Shown piece by piece: positions 56,331 through 61,116 of a DNA stretch of 64,000 nt; position 1 is the first letter of the stretch; each line of letters opens with the position of its first letter. The translations under genes and the position numbers were made by a program. The stretch spans positions 1,400,001 to 1,464,000 of the forward strand of contig NZ_CP127389.1 of NCBI RefSeq assembly GCF_030271835.1, in the 5' to 3' direction. Source of the stretch: Proteus appendicitidis (GTDB lineage Bacteria > Pseudomonadota > Gammaproteobacteria > Enterobacterales > Enterobacteriaceae). Below the pieces are notes generated by a model, which searched no databases, was not told where the DNA came from, and saw only the letters and a program-made list of their open reading frames with translations.

Positions 56331-57260
56331 GTGTACGCTAAAAATGTTTTTTCATTGCATCTATTACATCCAAAATATTTCTTAACTTGGTTTGGTGTTT
56401 TTATTCTTTTTTTATTAGTACAACTTCCTTATTCTTGGTTACTTTTTTTAGGTAAACATCTTGGGCTGTTATCTCGTTTCTTTGTCAAAAGAAGAGTCTC
56501 GATCATAAAGAAAAATTTAGAATTATGTTTCCCTAATAAAGATAAAAATGAAATTAACAAGCTTGTGATGGATAATTTATCGTCATTAGGTGTCGCATTA
56601 TTTGAAACAGGCATGGCGTGGTTTTGGAGTGATCGCCGATTAAAAAGCCTCTTTGAAGTCCAGGGGATCGCCAATTTTACTGATGCAAATGATAAAAATG
56701 CTGGGATCCTATTAATTGGTATACATTCTATGTCTCTAGAGCTGGGTGGACGTATCATGGGGCTTTGTTTCCCTGTGAACGCTATGTATAGACCACATAA
56801 TAATAAAGCGATGGAGTTTATCCAAACTAAAGCAAGATGCCGTTCAGATAAGGGCATGATAGATAGACGTAACTTGAAGTTTATGGTTATGGAGTTAAAA
56901 AAAGGGAAAGCAATTTGGTTTGCTCCTGACCAAGACTTTGGTTTAAAAGGTACAACATTTTCTCCATTCTTTTCTGTTGAAAAAACATCAACTTCAAAAG
57001 GGGTTGCTATTTTAGCAAAATTATCAGGAGCACCATCTTTAACTGTTACTTTGGTCAGAAATGAAAATCTGAAAGGCAAAAAATACAGTTTAATCATAGG
57101 TAAAGAGCTGATTAATTATCCTTCTGAAGATATTCAAAATGACACAGATAGAATGAATAAGTTGATTGAAACAGAAATTATGAGAGCGCCAGATCAATAT
57201 TTATGGGCTCACCGTCGTTTTAAAACTCGACCAGCAGGTGAAGCCAGCTTTTATAATTAA
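56331..57260 (+). CDS. Lipid A late acyltransferase, LpxL/LpxP family
   Basis: 309 residues (E. coli LpxP and LpxL 306). GTG start after AAAGGA. One N-terminal membrane helix (YFLTWFGVFILFLLVQLPYSW) is followed by the acyltransferase domain with HSMSLE (H-X4-E catalytic pair) in LLIGIHSMSLELGGRIMG, YRPHNNKAMEFIQ, and FAPDQDFGLK; it ends LWAHRRFKTRPAGEASFYN. It adds a secondary acyl chain to Kdo2-lipid IVA. LpxP is the cold-induced form, and the csp neighbour hints at it, but sequence alone cannot separate LpxL from LpxP. Confidence 0.9.
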   Translation: MYAKNVFSLHLLHPKYFLTWFGVFILFLLVQLPYSWLLFLGKHLGLLSRFFVKRRVSIIKKNLELCFPNKDKNEINKLVMDNLSSLGVALFETGMAWFWSDRRLKSLFEVQGIANFTDANDKNAGILLIGIHSMSLELGGRIMGLCFPVNAMYRPHNNKAMEFIQTKARCRSDKGMIDRRNLKFMVMELKKGKAIWFAPDQDFGLKGTTFSPFFSVEKTSTSKGVAILAKLSGAPSLTVTLVRNENLKGKKYSLIIGKELINYPSEDIQNDTDRMNKLIETEIMRAPDQYLWAHRRFKTRPAGEASFYN

Positions 57261-57275
57261 TTATTAATATATATA

Positions 57276-57375
57276 AAAAAAGACCAACACATGATGTGTT
57301 GGTCACAGTAAATACTGGAAGCAATGTGAGCAATGTCGTTGTGAAAAACCAAGTAAAACACTCAACTATTCACGA
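57276..57375 (-). ncRNA. ryhB: RyhB-type small RNA, copy 1
   Basis: On the minus strand the core CGACATTGCTCACATTGCTT, followed by CCAGTATT, is that of E. coli RyhB. The promoter is TTGACA (57405-57410), a 17-base spacer and TATCTT (57382-57387), giving a start near 57375. The RNA ends in a terminator stem GACCAACACATCATGTGTTGGTC region (57283-57305) followed by T7. A Fur box overlaps the promoter. RyhB is the Hfq-dependent RNA that represses iron-using proteins (sdh, sodB, fumarases) under iron starvation. About 100 nucleotides long. Confidence 0.95.
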
Positions 57376-57383
57376 GGTAAAAG

Positions 57384-57396
57384 ATAATCATTATCA
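57384..57396 (-). promoter_or_regulatory. Fur box of ryhB copy 1
   Basis: GATAATCATTATC, a near-palindrome overlapping the -10 (TATCTT) of the small RNA. It agrees with the core of the 19-bp Fur consensus GATAATGATWATCATTATC. Confidence 0.9.
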
Positions 57397-57420
57397 CTTA
57401 ACTTGTCAACCCTAATGTTT

Positions 57421-57681
57421 GTATGGATTTTATCGATAAAGACAGGGCATACAAAGCAAAGATAAGACGATTAAAATTATATAAATAAGTTAAAATAGAG
57501 TTAGCAAATATAGAAATAAACTATATCTACTTAATATGTTATAGTCATAATAAAAATATTATTTATATAGTAATGAATTCTAATTTCTTTAAAATATATA
57601 CTCGTTATTTAATAATAAATACTATTTCTACTTGATAGAGATTGATGTTTATTAAAAATATATGATTTTAATTTTTCTATA
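57421..57681. other. AT-rich spacer between ryhB copy 1 and the pilin-like gene
   Basis: No ORF or RNA recognised. Confidence 0.4.
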
Positions 57682-57993
57682 TTAGTTATATTCGATATCC
57701 ATAATCCCTACATTTTCTTTGATCCAATTTATGCTCATTGTACCTTTATTTTCACCCAATTGAGCGTCAAAAACTTTATTGGGTTCAATGTTATGCAAAG
57801 TTTCCTCCATTTCAGTTCCATTCCAACAATTTGTTTTAAAAGTATTTCCTACTGAGTTGGTCATACAATTTCCCTCTATAATTGAACCTGTAAATGTAAT
57901 TGTTCCTGAACCGATTACTTTATTATTATTTGCCATAGCTGGAGCTGATAATAAAAGTGCTAAAAAACTTCCGATAATAAAATTATTTTTCAT
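57682..57993 (-). CDS. Short fimbrial-subunit-like secreted protein
   Basis: 103 residues; mature about 82. Signal peptide MKNNFIIGSFLALLLSAPAMA. The mature start GSGTITFTGSIIEGNC resembles the first strands of type-1 pilins (G.I.F.G.I....C), with Cys43 and Cys56 close together. It is about half a normal pilin and ends IMDIEYN, so it may be a truncated or specialised subunit. AAGGA precedes the ATG. No usher or chaperone gene is near. Low GC relative to backbone. Confidence 0.6.
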   Translation of the reverse strand: MKNNFIIGSFLALLLSAPAMANNNKVIGSGTITFTGSIIEGNCMTNSVGNTFKTNCWNGTEMEETLHNIEPNKVFDAQLGENKGTMSINWIKENVGIMDIEYN

Positions 57994-58419
57994 TTTATAT
58001 TCCTTAAATATTCTTTCTTTGGTTAATTTTTTATTTGTTTTTCTGTATACAATGAATAAGTATTTTTTCGTACCAAGTTGGTGGAAGGAATATTAGAGGA
58101 AAAAAATATATCAATCTGTAAAAAATCTTGATAGTTAATGACAGGTAGATAAAGATTTATGAATGAATTTATGATTTTTTCAGTACTGAATTATTAACAC
58201 GAGTTAATTATAATTTATATAAATATCTGAAATTTAAAAATTAAATTTATTTTTGATTATTTTTGTTAATAAGTTAACTTTTTTTGATATTAGTTAAATT
58301 ACTTAATTTTTTCATGATACATTTTGTCGTTAAAATAGAAAACTTATAAAATGAGTAATTTCAGAGTTCAAAAAAAGTTGTCAAAATATTACAAAGAAAT
58401 AGTTATTAAGAATAAAAAC
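57994..58419. other. AT-rich upstream region with first copy of a 24-bp repeat
   Basis: The motif GGAAAAAAATATATCAATCT... (58098-58121) recurs at 58790-58813. Otherwise no ORF was recognised. Confidence 0.45.
58098..58121 (-). repeat. 24-bp repeat, copy A
   Basis: GG-A7-T-ATATCAATCTGTAA, matching 58790-58813 with one mismatch, 105 bases upstream of the pilin-like gene. Confidence 0.6.
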
Positions 58420-58620
58420 TCATTTTTTTAGATAGTTTTTATATTGATAAGATAACGTTTGATATTGAAAAGGAACTCCTAATGTTCCTGTAATTAATTG
58501 AGTGATGTGTTGATTACTTTTATTTCCCAGTTTATGAAGGTATGTACATTTTGCTCTGTCACTAATTTTAGCTTTATTGCCATATTCCTTTTCGTCCATT
58601 ACAAAAGACATAATTGGCAT
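58420..58620 (-). CDS. Possible 66-residue hypothetical protein
   Basis: MPIMSFVMDEKEYGNKAKISDRAKCTYLHKLGNKSNQHITQLITG... has a balanced composition, unlike most chance frames in this AT-rich stretch. No strong ribosome site was seen. No family recognised. Low confidence. Confidence 0.3.
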   Translation of the reverse strand: MPIMSFVMDEKEYGNKAKISDRAKCTYLHKLGNKSNQHITQLITGTLGVPFQYQTLSYQYKNYLKK

Positions 58621-58717
58621 AATATGTTTACGCTATGGGGGAAAAATAGGAAAGTAGGTTTAGTTTGAAAATAGTGAGAGTTTAGCGATTGAATATTTTG
58701 AGAGGGTAATTTAGATA

Positions 58718-58742
58718 AAAAAATCCCCGCGCAAGGCGGGGG
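58718..58742 (-). terminator. GC-rich hairpin with minus-strand T tract
   Basis: CCCCGC/GCGGGG with a 5-base loop, followed on the minus strand by T7. The SUKH-HEAT gene has its own terminator further upstream, so the transcript ended here is not identified. Confidence 0.7.
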
Positions 58743-59073
58743 AAAATTAAATATCTATCAGTGATGAAATACTGAAAAAAAATAATAAGGGAAAAAAAGA
58801 TATCAATCTGTAACAAACTTTAAAAAGAAATAATAAGAATAAGTGCAGAATTAGAGTGGTTTTCTGAGGTAATAAATGTTTTTTGGGTTTTATTGTATTT
58901 AACTGCGTGATTTTATTGGTTTTTATTTTAATTTAACTATGAGGTTAAATGGTATAAATGAAAATCATCTTGGTTTAGCTATAAAGTTTGCATACATTTA
59001 GTTGAAATTCTTGATAATTTATTTCATTGGTTAGTATAACAATATGCTTATTTATAATGAGATTTGAATTAAA
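58743..59073. other. AT-rich region, possible unassigned transcript
   Basis: No ORF recognised. The hairpin at 58718 would terminate a minus-strand transcript from here. It contains copy B of the 24-bp repeat (58790-58813). Confidence 0.35.
58790..58813 (-). repeat. 24-bp repeat, copy B
   Basis: GG-A7-G-ATATCAATCTGTAA, one mismatch from copy A, 170 bases upstream of the 66-residue ORF. Confidence 0.6.
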
Positions 59074-59107
59074 AATAGACAATAACAAGATCTACTTATT
59101 GTCTATT
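59074..59107 (-). terminator. Terminator of the SUKH-HEAT gene
   Basis: An AATAGACAATAA/TTATTGTCTATT stem, 38 bases past the stop. Confidence 0.75.
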
Positions 59108-59145
59108 TAAAATAAATAAGAGAAAAATGCCTATTTATCTGTCAG

Positions 59146-60567
59146 TTACCATTTTGTTACATCAACTTCATTGTTCTGATATACCTTCGCAATATAAGAA
59201 GAGATATTGTTGCGTATATAAGGATTTTTTTCTTTGGGATACATTTTCCAAGCTTGTTGTAAATAAGGTAACAACTCACTATCGATATAATTTGAGCTAG
59301 ATAATGCCTGAATTGCACCTAAGCTGATCTCTTCATTTTCAGAGATTGCGAGTTCATAAAATGCTGATGTTTTTTCTTTTAAATTAATATCATGAGAAGC
59401 TGCATAAATTGCACTTCTTATTATTTCTACATTTGGGTGAGTAAAGAATGGTTGAAAATCTTCAACTAAAACGGCTTTTAATTCGGCCAAAGAGTAACCG
59501 ATAAAACGTAATGTATCTTCGCTGTTCGTTACTTTAAGAATTGGGAAAAGGCTATCTTTGAAAAGAGAGCATTGATCTCTATATTTAGAGTAAATAATAG
59601 GAATAACAATGTCTGTTTTTTCATCAAATGGAGCAACTAAAGCTTGCTGAATATAAGGTAATGCTTGTTCTTTAAAATAAGTGGCTAAAACATTTAATGA
59701 AGCTTTATATAACTCAATATTTTCAGTTTGTAGCTGTTGTTCTAAAAAACATAAACTGCTATTGGATAATTTAGGCAACTTAGTTAGTGAGTTGATAGCA
59801 TTAATTTTTTTCGTAATATCTTCATTATTTTGGGCAAAATGAAGTAATGTTTCTTCATTGCCTCCCATTCGATGACCAAACCAACTTGTGTCATAGCCTA
59901 AAATCACTTCATCTAACCAACGTTCGTACCATTGTGTAAATGAAGTTTCATAGGAAAATGTGTAAGGAGTATCTGAATTAACCCAATCAGAGGTATATAA
60001 AATATGACCTTTATATTTACCATTGACCACTAATAAAAGATCGTATTCGCATCCACAAGTGCCTAAATAAAGCGTACCTTGATGAACTCTATCGCAAATA
60101 ATATCAAAGTCTTCATCACTACAGTCTTCAGGTACATGACACAGTGCTTTCCATTCATCGATATCCATTTTAGGTTTAAGTAAGCAGGGTAATGCACAAT
60201 TTTGTGCGCCATTTCTATCTATTGCGTCATCAAAAGCATATAAGCCATAGTAAGGACCCGCACCGCCATAAGAGCCTGTACCGCCATTGCCAATTTGAGT
60301 TATAAAGGCGATATAATCTTCGGGGAATTCACATCCTGCCTTTACTTGTAGCTGATTAACTTTCTCTATTGAGAGTGGAGAATTTAGTTGATATTTATGA
60401 TTGTCCGCACCAAATTCCTTATATTCATGATCAACACTAGATACGAGTACTAATTTTTCACGAATACGCTCTATAGGATTATCTGCATATTTTTTATTAA
60501 GTTGTTCCCATTGCTGCTCTGGTGTTAGCTCTTTATTTTTTCCAATGATAGTGGAAATAAAACCCAT
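59146..60567 (-). CDS. SMI1/KNR4 (SUKH) protein with C-terminal HEAT-like repeats
   Basis: 473 residues. Residues about 65-215 form a SUKH domain: LQVKAGCEFPEDYIAFITQIGNGGTGSYGGAGPYYGLYAF is the family core. The C-terminal half (about 245-470) is a series of paired helices, as in HEAT repeats (NAINSLTKLPKLSN, YKASLNVLATYFKEQ, RSAIYAASHDINLKE, LGAIQALSSSNY). No signal or membrane segment. SUKH proteins often neutralise secreted toxins, but no toxin gene lies beside it, so an orphan immunity or housekeeping role is open. It lies between the two ryhB copies. Confidence 0.8.
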   Translation of the reverse strand: MGFISTIIGKNKELTPEQQWEQLNKKYADNPIERIREKLVLVSSVDHEYKEFGADNHKYQLNSPLSIEKVNQLQVKAGCEFPEDYIAFITQIGNGGTGSYGGAGPYYGLYAFDDAIDRNGAQNCALPCLLKPKMDIDEWKALCHVPEDCSDEDFDIICDRVHQGTLYLGTCGCEYDLLLVVNGKYKGHILYTSDWVNSDTPYTFSYETSFTQWYERWLDEVILGYDTSWFGHRMGGNEETLLHFAQNNEDITKKINAINSLTKLPKLSNSSLCFLEQQLQTENIELYKASLNVLATYFKEQALPYIQQALVAPFDEKTDIVIPIIYSKYRDQCSLFKDSLFPILKVTNSEDTLRFIGYSLAELKAVLVEDFQPFFTHPNVEIIRSAIYAASHDINLKEKTSAFYELAISENEEISLGAIQALSSSNYIDSELLPYLQQAWKMYPKEKNPYIRNNISSYIAKVYQNNEVDVTKW

Positions 60568-60767
60568 AATTTAAAATCCCTATTGATGATATGGTTTAAT
60601 TATAATGTGGTTATTTCATGATCCTTTTTAGATGTGATAACCAAATACAATATTACTACCTTGCGTTAAATTCACTATAAACTATTTTAGCTTTAACAAG
60701 ATAATAGTATTTCGAAGGAGAGTATGTCCTCCATTTAGGGTTAAGCAGATTGCGGGATAATACAGAT

Positions 60768-60866
60768 AAAAAAAAGACCAACGCTAGGAGAGTTGGTCAA
60801 TAAATACTAGAAGCAATGTGAGCAATGTCGTTGTGAAAAACCAAGTAAAATACTCAACTATTCACG
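60768..60866 (-). ncRNA. ryhB2: RyhB-type small RNA, copy 2
   Basis: Nearly identical to copy 1 over the promoter, 5' part and core (ACGACATTGCTCACATTGCT, then TCTAGTATT with one change). The promoter is TTGACA (60896-60901), 17-base spacer, TATCTT (60873-60878). The terminator stem GACCAAC/GTTGGTC (60776-60798) has a different loop from copy 1 and ends in T8. The divergent terminator and conserved core indicate a true second gene, comparable to the RyhB-1/RyhB-2 pair in Salmonella. Confidence 0.94.
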
Positions 60867-60874
60867 AGTTAAAA

Positions 60875-60887
60875 GATAATCATTATC
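60875..60887 (-). promoter_or_regulatory. Fur box of ryhB copy 2
   Basis: GATAATCATTATC, identical to that of copy 1, overlapping the -10. Confidence 0.9.
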
Positions 60888-60954
60888 ATTTAATCTGTCA
60901 ACCCTAAGAAAATTGCGGTTATTATTTATTCACACTAAAAGCCAATAAATTATT

Positions 60955-61116
60955 TTACTTTATAGAAACCAAAGTTGGGATTTTATTATTAATAACAACA
61001 AGATCACTATTTTCTGATTTAGTGTTTATTGTATTTTTAACAGCACTCATTTTTTTCATTTTATTGACTAAATCTTTAAAATGCTGAGAGCGTAAATGTA
61101 TCGTTTTCTTAACCAT
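60955..61116 (-). CDS. Short basic protein under a Fur-like box
   Basis: 53 residues, not in any larger frame: MVKKTIHLRSQHFKDLVNKM...SENSDLVVINNKIPTLVSIK. An AAGGAG site stands 7 bases before the ATG. The N-terminal half is basic and helical. A Fur-like box lies 59 bases upstream of the ATG. Its length and C-terminal Lys recall HemP, but the HemP signature (RLT..GKLILTK) is absent, so I leave it unassigned. It ends 54 bases before the ryhB copy 2 promoter. Confidence 0.7.
   Translation of the reverse strand: MVKKTIHLRSQHFKDLVNKMKKMSAVKNTINTKSENSDLVVINNKIPTLVSIK

What the first reader, a model, noticed from the sequence alone, without database searches (positions are those of the whole stretch)
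57276..60901. Two near-identical RyhB small RNA genes 3.5 kb apart, each with its own Fur-controlled promoter
Both copies keep TTGACA, a 17-base spacer, TATCTT, the Fur box and the RyhB core, while the terminator loops have diverged. Seen directly on the minus strand. Paired RyhB genes are known in Salmonella, Yersinia and Klebsiella, but usually at distant loci; this close same-strand arrangement is unusual and suggests dosage or division of targets. Copy 2 changes one core-flanking base (CCAGTATT to CTAGTATT).
Basis: partly seen in the sequence, partly recalled or inferred. Interest (0 to 1): 0.8.

Follow-up and report, generated by a model that had tools for sequence, protein, structure and literature searches.

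The report
Paired ryhB genes, one doubly specialised
This Proteus genome carries four genes for the iron-saving small RNA RyhB, two of them in an old neighbouring pair, and one of that pair ends in a loop that also appears in other iron-controlled small RNA candidates, including ones carried by Proteus viruses.

Summary
Both sites pass Rfam's RyhB cut-off (60.4 and 59.1 bits) and have the stated promoter and Fur-box-like palindrome. The genome has four ryhB genes. The pair is not a recent duplication: the copies are 88% alike over 152 bp, and among 20 Proteus genomes copy C occurs in 20 and copy D in 18, each with its own fixed sequence. Both belong to a widespread RyhB subtype with a covarying 5' hairpin.

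The new point is copy C's terminator loop, CUCCUAGCG. It took 1 change in 9 sites where flanking DNA predicts 22. Loop conservation alone is not special: copies A and B have constant loops too. But C's loop also closes terminators of other Fur-boxed RNA candidates, some without a RyhB core, several in prophages. The loop-terminator pattern occurs in 5 of 5 sampled Proteus genomes and 0 of 387 others in the family. I propose that C carries two active parts: the shared RyhB core and a genus-specific loop. The loop's target is unknown; expression is untested.

The parts
60769..60867 (-). ryhB copy C (CTAG allele): predicted RNA from about 60867 to the T-run at about 60769
   Evidence: RF00057 60.4 bits at 60837-60769; present in 20 of 20 Proteus genomes. 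Start inferred from the -10 position
60873..60901 (-). Copy C promoter TTGACA-17-TATCTT with overlapping Fur-box-like palindrome TGATAATGATTATC
   Evidence: near-invariant in 20 genomes: -35 0.14 and Fur/-10 0.12 changes per site against 2.45 upstream
60833..60865 (-). Copy C 5' hairpin of the subtype (GUGAAUAGUUGAGU..ACUUGGUUUUUCAC)
   Evidence: fold; covariation over 41 aligned sequences
60810..60829 (-). RyhB core GACATTGCTCACATTGCTTC, identical in all four copies of this genome
   Evidence: 0 changes in 20 genomes
60776..60798 (-). Copy C terminator GACCAAC-TCTCCTAGC-GTTGGTC; loop 9-mer CTCCTAGCG is 60790-60782
   Evidence: fold; loop 1 change in 9 sites; loop shared with other Fur-boxed terminators
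57275..57375 (-). ryhB copy D (CCAG allele): predicted RNA
   Evidence: RF00057 59.1 bits at 57345-57275; present in 18 of 20 Proteus genomes, absent between copy C and the acyltransferase gene in G005 and G010
57381..57409 (-). Copy D promoter TTGACA-17-TATCTT with overlapping Fur-box-like palindrome
   Evidence: 0.14 and 0.19 changes per site against 3.07 upstream
57318..57337 (-). RyhB core of copy D
   Evidence: 1 change in 18 genomes
57306..57317 (-). Copy D CAGTATTTACTG, predicted small hairpin after the core; no change in 18 genomes
   Evidence: fold
57282..57304 (-). Copy D terminator GACCAACAC-ATCAT-GTGTTGGTC; its loop varies freely (1.80 changes per site)
60955..61116 (-). 53-codon ORF just upstream of copy C, with its own Fur-box-like palindrome at about 61192-61171; candidate Fur-controlled small protein
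   Evidence: intact in 15 of 20 genomes, dN/dS 0.24 over the 14 of equal length; no Pfam or NCBIfam match
59146..60567 (-). 473-aa SUKH-1 (SMI1/KNR4) protein between the copies; part of the variable cargo of the gap
   Evidence: PF09346 32.4 bits, cut-off 25.4; gap content differs between genomes
56331..57260 (+). Lipid A acyltransferase-family gene flanking copy D
   Evidence: PF03279 268.8 bits; present beside this locus in 20 of 20 genomes

Best explanation
These are two genuine, anciently separated ryhB genes of one RyhB subtype, kept side by side in the genus Proteus on top of two further ryhB genes elsewhere. Each should be silenced by Fur when iron is plentiful and made when iron is short, and each should save iron through the RyhB core that all four copies share (inferred from RyhB biology). 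Beyond that shared job the copies have specialised. Copy D keeps a small hairpin after the core and a free terminator loop. Copy C has a derived CUAG after the core and an invariant loop CUCCUAGCG in its terminator. That loop is a separate functional element, most likely a second base-pairing site (its CUCCU resembles an anti-Shine-Dalgarno sequence). The same loop is used by other Fur-boxed RNA candidates in Proteus, several on prophages. Shown: homology, conservation, covariation of the 5' hairpin, shared loop, genus restriction. Inferred: Fur control, transcription, iron sparing, pairing by the loop.
For: RyhB membership of both sites and four copies per genome. Copies A, B and C in 20 of 20 Proteus genomes, D in 18 of 20. 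Fixed differences between C and D at seven alignment columns, one of which (C/T after the core) was used to sort them; all D sequences form one clade, support 0.98. No gene conversion: C-D identity within a genome equals that between genomes (5' part 0.860 against 0.859, p 0.37; 3' part p 0.06). 5' hairpin: 93.4% of cells paired, 5 of 13 pairs with changes on both sides, at most 38.5% when slid. Loop of C: 1 change in 9 sites; 22.1 expected from the upstream spacer (Poisson P 6e-9), 11.8 from C's own 5' hairpin (P 1e-4). The same loop in 37 distinct terminators of several bodies, 36 with a Fur-box match of 14 or more of 19, against 5.3% of random windows. Loop plus T-run in 5 of 392 family genomes, all 5 Proteus.
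Against: No expression data. Invariant terminator loops also occur in copy A (20 of 20) and copy B (11 of 11 seen), so loop conservation alone does not set C apart; the loop may serve stability or a protein. The 37 loop-terminators are related by descent and not independent. Predicted pairing did not discriminate: sodB was unremarkable (z -0.2 to -1.5), sdhC gave z -1.9 to -3.1, but an unrelated leader gave z -2.2 to -2.6. No conserved iron-related target of the loop was found. Copy D is missing in 2 of 20 species, so it is dispensable.
Confidence: 0.68

Rival explanations
1. Pure dosage: the four copies are redundant and the pair only raises RyhB output during iron starvation.
For: The 20-base core is identical in all four copies, and each copy of the pair keeps a near-invariant promoter and Fur palindrome.
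Against: C and D keep separate fixed sequences outside the core across the genus, with no gene conversion; C's loop and D's CAGUAUUUACUG are each constrained in a copy-specific way.
Confidence: 0.2
2. The C loop is constrained for termination, Hfq binding or RNA stability, not for pairing with a target.
For: Terminator loops of copies A and B are also constant. The T-run and stem next to the loop are conserved as well.
Against: Copy D of the same subtype terminates with a freely varying loop (1.80 changes per site). Stems of the other loop-bearing terminators differ while the loop stays. A general termination or Hfq role does not explain a 9-base sequence confined to Proteus in this sample.
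Confidence: 0.25
3. The loop came to the host from prophages or the reverse by simple descent, and the shared sequence is only a relic of recent exchange without present function.
For: Several of the other loop-bearing RNAs lie in prophages and have remnants of the RyhB core.
Against: Copy C is in 20 of 20 species and its loop is nearly unchanged while neighbouring DNA changed about 2.5 times per site; in some of the other RNAs the core decayed but the loop did not.
Confidence: 0.1
4. The sites are decayed ryhB copies that are no longer transcribed.
For: No transcript was measured here.
Against: Promoter, palindrome, core and terminator are conserved against neutral rates in both copies.
Confidence: 0.04

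Closest known systems
RyhB-1/RyhB-2 siblings (Salmonella RfrA/RfrB, Yersinia RyhB1/RyhB2, Klebsiella ryhB/ryhB-2)
   Same: Same RNA family, same core. A K. pneumoniae record with two RyhB places (CP125156, 5.4 Mb, labelled plasmid) has one of this very 5'-hairpin subtype; a paper names a second K. pneumoniae gene ryhB-2 away from yhhX-yhhY (PMC3415461, passage). That the two are the same gene is inference.
   Different: Siblings in Salmonella and Yersinia are reported as distal (PMC4211561, passages); here four copies with two adjacent. Whether Salmonella RfrB is of this subtype was not tested; its sequence was not found in the papers searched.
PrrF1/PrrF2 of Pseudomonas aeruginosa
   Same: Two tandem, Fur-controlled iron-sparing RNAs (PMC4211561, passages): the same kind of arrangement and role.
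   Different: Not homologous to RyhB according to that review. The Proteus copies are about 1 to 5.3 kb apart with genes between, so a read-through RNA like PrrH is less likely.
OmrA/OmrB of E. coli
   Same: Adjacent paired sibling RNAs that arose by duplication (PMC4211561, passages).
   Different: Different family and control.
Prophage-encoded Pas sRNAs of E. coli
   Same: Small RNAs carried by prophages and exchanged with the host (PMC13192938, preprint, passages); analogue of the loop-bearing prophage RNAs.
   Different: The passages seen describe no RyhB relation for them and do not mention Proteus (0 occurrences).

Membership tests
RyhB (RF00057) | Covariance-model score at or above the gathering cut-off | tested here: met
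   60.4 and 59.1 bits against 55
RyhB (RF00057) | RyhB core sequence | tested here: met
   GACATTGCTCACATTGCTTC identical in all four copies of this genome
RyhB (RF00057) | Fur box over the promoter | tested here: met
   Sequence only: palindrome between and over the -35/-10 boxes, conserved. Fur binding not tested
RyhB (RF00057) | Intrinsic terminator at the 3' end | tested here: met
   Folds.
RyhB (RF00057) | Iron-repressed, Hfq-dependent transcript that down-regulates iron enzymes | not testable with these tools
   No expression data; pairing with sodB and sdhC predicted but not discriminating
5'-hairpin RyhB subtype (seen in Klebsiella, Pseudescherichia and others) | GAAUAGUUGAG..CUCAGGUAUUC hairpin ahead of the core | tested here: met
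   Covariation over 41 aligned sequences
5'-hairpin RyhB subtype (seen in Klebsiella, Pseudescherichia and others) | Shared genomic locus | tested here: not met
   Ten proteins of the Proteus locus against 20 loci of about +/-6 kb from 19 genomes plus 3 named loci: only a cspA match in one. The subtype moves between loci, so locus does not define it
Tandem sibling sRNAs (PrrF-like arrangement) | Two homologous genes in the same orientation close together | tested here: met
   18 of 18 genomes with both copies have them on one strand, 988 to 5308 bases apart

The most novel reading that the evidence does not exclude
Proteus has a genus-specific, Fur-controlled RNA module: a terminator hairpin with the invariant loop CUCCUAGCG that acts as a pairing site of its own. 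It is fused to the RyhB core in the host gene ryhB-C, was captured by lambdoid prophages that carry it between the late regulator Q and the lysis genes, and in some of these RNAs persists after the RyhB core is gone. The host thus runs a two-site RyhB, and phages run their own iron-responsive RNAs that share one of the two sites. A possible partner is the complement CGCTAGGAG, found in about 125-base ERIC-like repeats of the genome.
Probability: 0.42. Interest if true: 0.78.

Novelty: new variant of a known kind. Interest (0 to 1): 0.6.

Why it matters
Four RyhB genes in one genome, with two kept adjacent and separately conserved across a genus, give a natural test of how sibling sRNAs divide work: core shared, everything else copy-specific. 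If the terminator loop is a second pairing site, RyhB-C would be a case where the terminator of an sRNA is itself a targeting module, and the prophage RNAs would show that module travelling without the ancestral core. It would also link phage carriage to host iron status, since the RNAs in question have Fur-box-like sites.

Tried and rejected
A third ryhB remnant between the copies (58776-58717): 20.6 bits, E 0.44; no core; rejected as a plain terminator. Concerted evolution of C and D: tested and not found. Synteny of the subtype with the Proteus locus in other genera: not found. HemP-like identity of the 53-codon ORF: no Pfam or NCBIfam match. Targets of the C loop: 15 sites of CTAGGAGA outside C in this genome, 4 of them 12 to 14 bases ahead of a start codon (L156, L160 a 399-aa protein, L161 a 70-aa protein, L163 a 393-aa protein; the names PilC/HofC, YacG and methionine gamma-lyase are my recall from the sequences); the listing was capped. 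None is known to me as iron-linked and none was tested further. A CUAG-CUAG contact between C's linker and its loop: possible on paper, no variation to test it. The C/T change was part of the motif used to tell C from D; position (C upstream, D next to the acyltransferase gene) agrees in the 18 genomes with both. The per-site change counts use the acyltransferase gene tree for both copies, and one genome (G010) shows signs of mixed ancestry at the locus. In one search sites without a T-run, without a perfect stem of 6 or more, or without 165 bases upstream were dropped; one search lists the 46 distinct sequences before those filters (a T-run was still required), including a decayed one from P. 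hauseri and coding-region sites.

Literature. Searches for RyhB with Proteus, paralogues, tandem copies, multiple RyhB and prophage-encoded RNAs listed no paper on several ryhB genes in Proteus by title or abstract start; most were seen as listings only. One passage states ryhB is found in P. mirabilis and single-copy in Morganella morganii (PMC3521468). The library holds open-licence papers only, so this is not proof of absence.
Full report
1. What is there. The covariance model confirms both RyhB genes on the minus strand. I call the upstream one copy C (predicted RNA about 60867-60769) and the downstream one copy D (57375-57275). Each has TTGACA, 17 bases, TATCTT and a Fur-box-like palindrome over the promoter. 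The pair shares a 152-bp cassette at 88% identity, and the homology ends at its edges. The cassette is promoter, RNA and terminator and little else.

2. Four copies. The same genome (4.1 Mb, one contig) has two more ryhB genes above the cut-off. Copy B lies beside a pirin gene, probably the E. coli ryhB neighbourhood (recalled). Copy A lies between sapA and pspF. In 20 Proteus genomes, own included, copies A, B and C occur in 20 and D in 18; G005 and G010 lack D although the contig is continuous from C to the flanking acyltransferase gene. Three of these C or D matches fall just below the cut-off (51.8 to 54.8 bits). In a sample of 198 genomes of the family only the two Proteus genomes reached four; nine others had three (stricter filters). 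The genus is identified by contig matches to named records: P. mirabilis, P. terrae, P. vulgaris, P. hauseri and others. The species of the window is not known to me.

3. An old pair of a known subtype. C and D keep fixed differences at seven alignment columns, one of them used for sorting. All D sequences form one clade with support 0.98, and C-D identity is no higher within a genome than between genomes, so gene conversion is not seen. The split therefore predates the sampled species. Spacing varies from 988 to 5308 bases, always on one strand, in 18 of 18 pairs, because the genes between differ. A model built from C, D and three outside sequences finds the same 5' hairpin across the family (392 genomes; I inspected 25 non-Proteus loci among the best). 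The hairpin is supported by covariation: 93.4% of cells paired, 32 cells with changes on both sides, at most 38.5% paired when slid. These relatives sit at other loci. A K. pneumoniae record carries one.

4. Copy-specific constraint. Counting changes on the tree of the flanking acyltransferase gene, upstream DNA changed 2.45 (C) and 3.07 (D) times per site, third codon positions of the gene 2.58, the core 0.00 and 0.05. D's CAGUAUUUACUG took no change and its terminator loop 1.80 per site. C's loop took one change in nine sites; 22 are expected at the upstream rate and 12 at the rate of C's own 5' hairpin (Poisson). Against over-reading this: the loops of copy A (20 of 20) and copy B (11 of 11 seen) are also constant, so constrained terminator loops are usual in RyhB and D is the exception.

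5. The loop outside RyhB-C. Weak RyhB matches that recurred in other Proteus genomes proved to be another Fur-boxed RNA candidate with an altered core and the loop CTCCTAGCG. A genus-wide search for the loop followed by a T-run found C in all 20 genomes plus further loci (listing capped, overlapping matches repeated). Reading these and virus-collection stretches gave 37 distinct terminators with a perfect stem: 16 from copy C, 14 of the E type, 2 E-like with most of the core deleted, 4 without a recognisable core, 1 with a partial core. Of 37, 36 have a Fur-box match of at least 14 of 19 in the 170 bases upstream, at 100 to 122 bases before the loop, against 5.3% of random windows. They share ancestry and are not independent. 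The stems differ (GACCAAC/GTTGGTC; GCCGATA/TATCGGC; GCCGACA/TGTCGGC) while the loop stays. In 392 family genomes the pattern occurs in the 5 Proteus genomes sampled and in none of 387 others, while the pattern read backwards occurs in 15. Where looked at, these RNAs lie between lysis genes and a Q-like regulator of prophages. In this genome only copy C has the loop-terminator; the one other pattern match has no such terminator.

6. How it most likely works. Iron shortage inactivates Fur, all four genes are transcribed, and the shared core acts on the usual RyhB targets (inferred from RyhB biology). The sodB leader has GCAATGTC at the start codon, an exact complement of the start of the core, but overall duplex energies are unremarkable (z -0.2 to -1.5). 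The sdhC leader scores better (z -1.9 to -3.1), yet an unrelated control leader scored z -2.2 to -2.6. These predictions therefore do not prove targets. Copy C adds the loop, which I read as a second pairing site because it is held constant across different stems and bodies, is a CU-rich anti-Shine-Dalgarno-like sequence, and is confined to one genus in the sample. Its partner is open. Candidates seen are a few ribosome-binding sites and, more speculatively, ERIC-like repeats with the exact complement.

7. Known or new. RyhB siblings, tandem iron-sparing RNAs (PrrF) and prophage sRNAs are each known (PMC4211561 and PMC13192938, passages). I found no report of four ryhB genes or of this loop in the searches named under Tried and rejected, which cover open-licence papers only. 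I file the pair as a new variant of a known kind. The loop shared between a host ryhB gene and prophage RNA candidates is the part that would surprise a specialist, if expression and pairing are shown.

Noticed in passing
L202-L204, L206, L208-L211, L213-L223 and 35 IMG/VR stretches (L226-L260): A Fur-boxed RyhB-like RNA candidate ('E') with an altered core (GACATGACTTACATTGCTTC) and the loop CTCCTAGCG; exact core pattern in 12 of 20 Proteus genomes, not in the window's own genome (0 at up to 2 mismatches). CTCCTAGCG present in 35 of 35 viral stretches. No match in the phages collection.
   Followed up: partly
L299, L305, L306, L314 (and L315, L322, L298): Fur-boxed intergenic RNA candidates with the same loop and stem but no recognisable RyhB core (best ungapped match 10-11 of 20). 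In L306 two loop-terminators sit in one prophage stretch.
   Followed up: partly
L222, L306, L315: Prophage position: holin and endolysin on one side (L222) and a Q-like antiterminator on the other (L306, L315). Context of L300 and L299 in their genomes was not resolved.
   Followed up: partly
window 60955-61116 (-): 53-codon ORF with its own Fur-box-like palindrome upstream of copy C, intact in 15 of 20 genomes, dN/dS 0.24 over 14; 5 homologues found, the only source name being Proteus sp. ZN5.
   Followed up: partly
own genome, L333-L348: 16 sites of CTAGGAGCATA, most in ERIC-like repeats of about 125 bases (the name ERIC is recalled); 10 of 16 carry CGCTAGGAG, the exact complement of the C loop. 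May be coincidence.
   Followed up: no
window 57345-60837 and loci L035-L053: The gap between copies C and D holds different genes in different species (SUKH-1 protein, NAD-dependent epimerase-like and other ORFs, an insertion-like gene in L045); functions other than those are by eye.
   Followed up: no
L054 and L002: Copy A (C1:1780724) lies between SapA and PspF genes; copy B (C1:3992276) lies beside a pirin gene, probably the E. coli ryhB neighbourhood (yhhW, recalled).
   Followed up: yes
plasmid collection: NZ_OL790811, NZ_OL790812, CP125156 and others: Records of 4-5 Mb labelled plasmids look like whole chromosomes. Two K. pneumoniae records of about 0.22 Mb also carry the RyhB subtype, one beside a Fiu receptor gene.
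   Followed up: no
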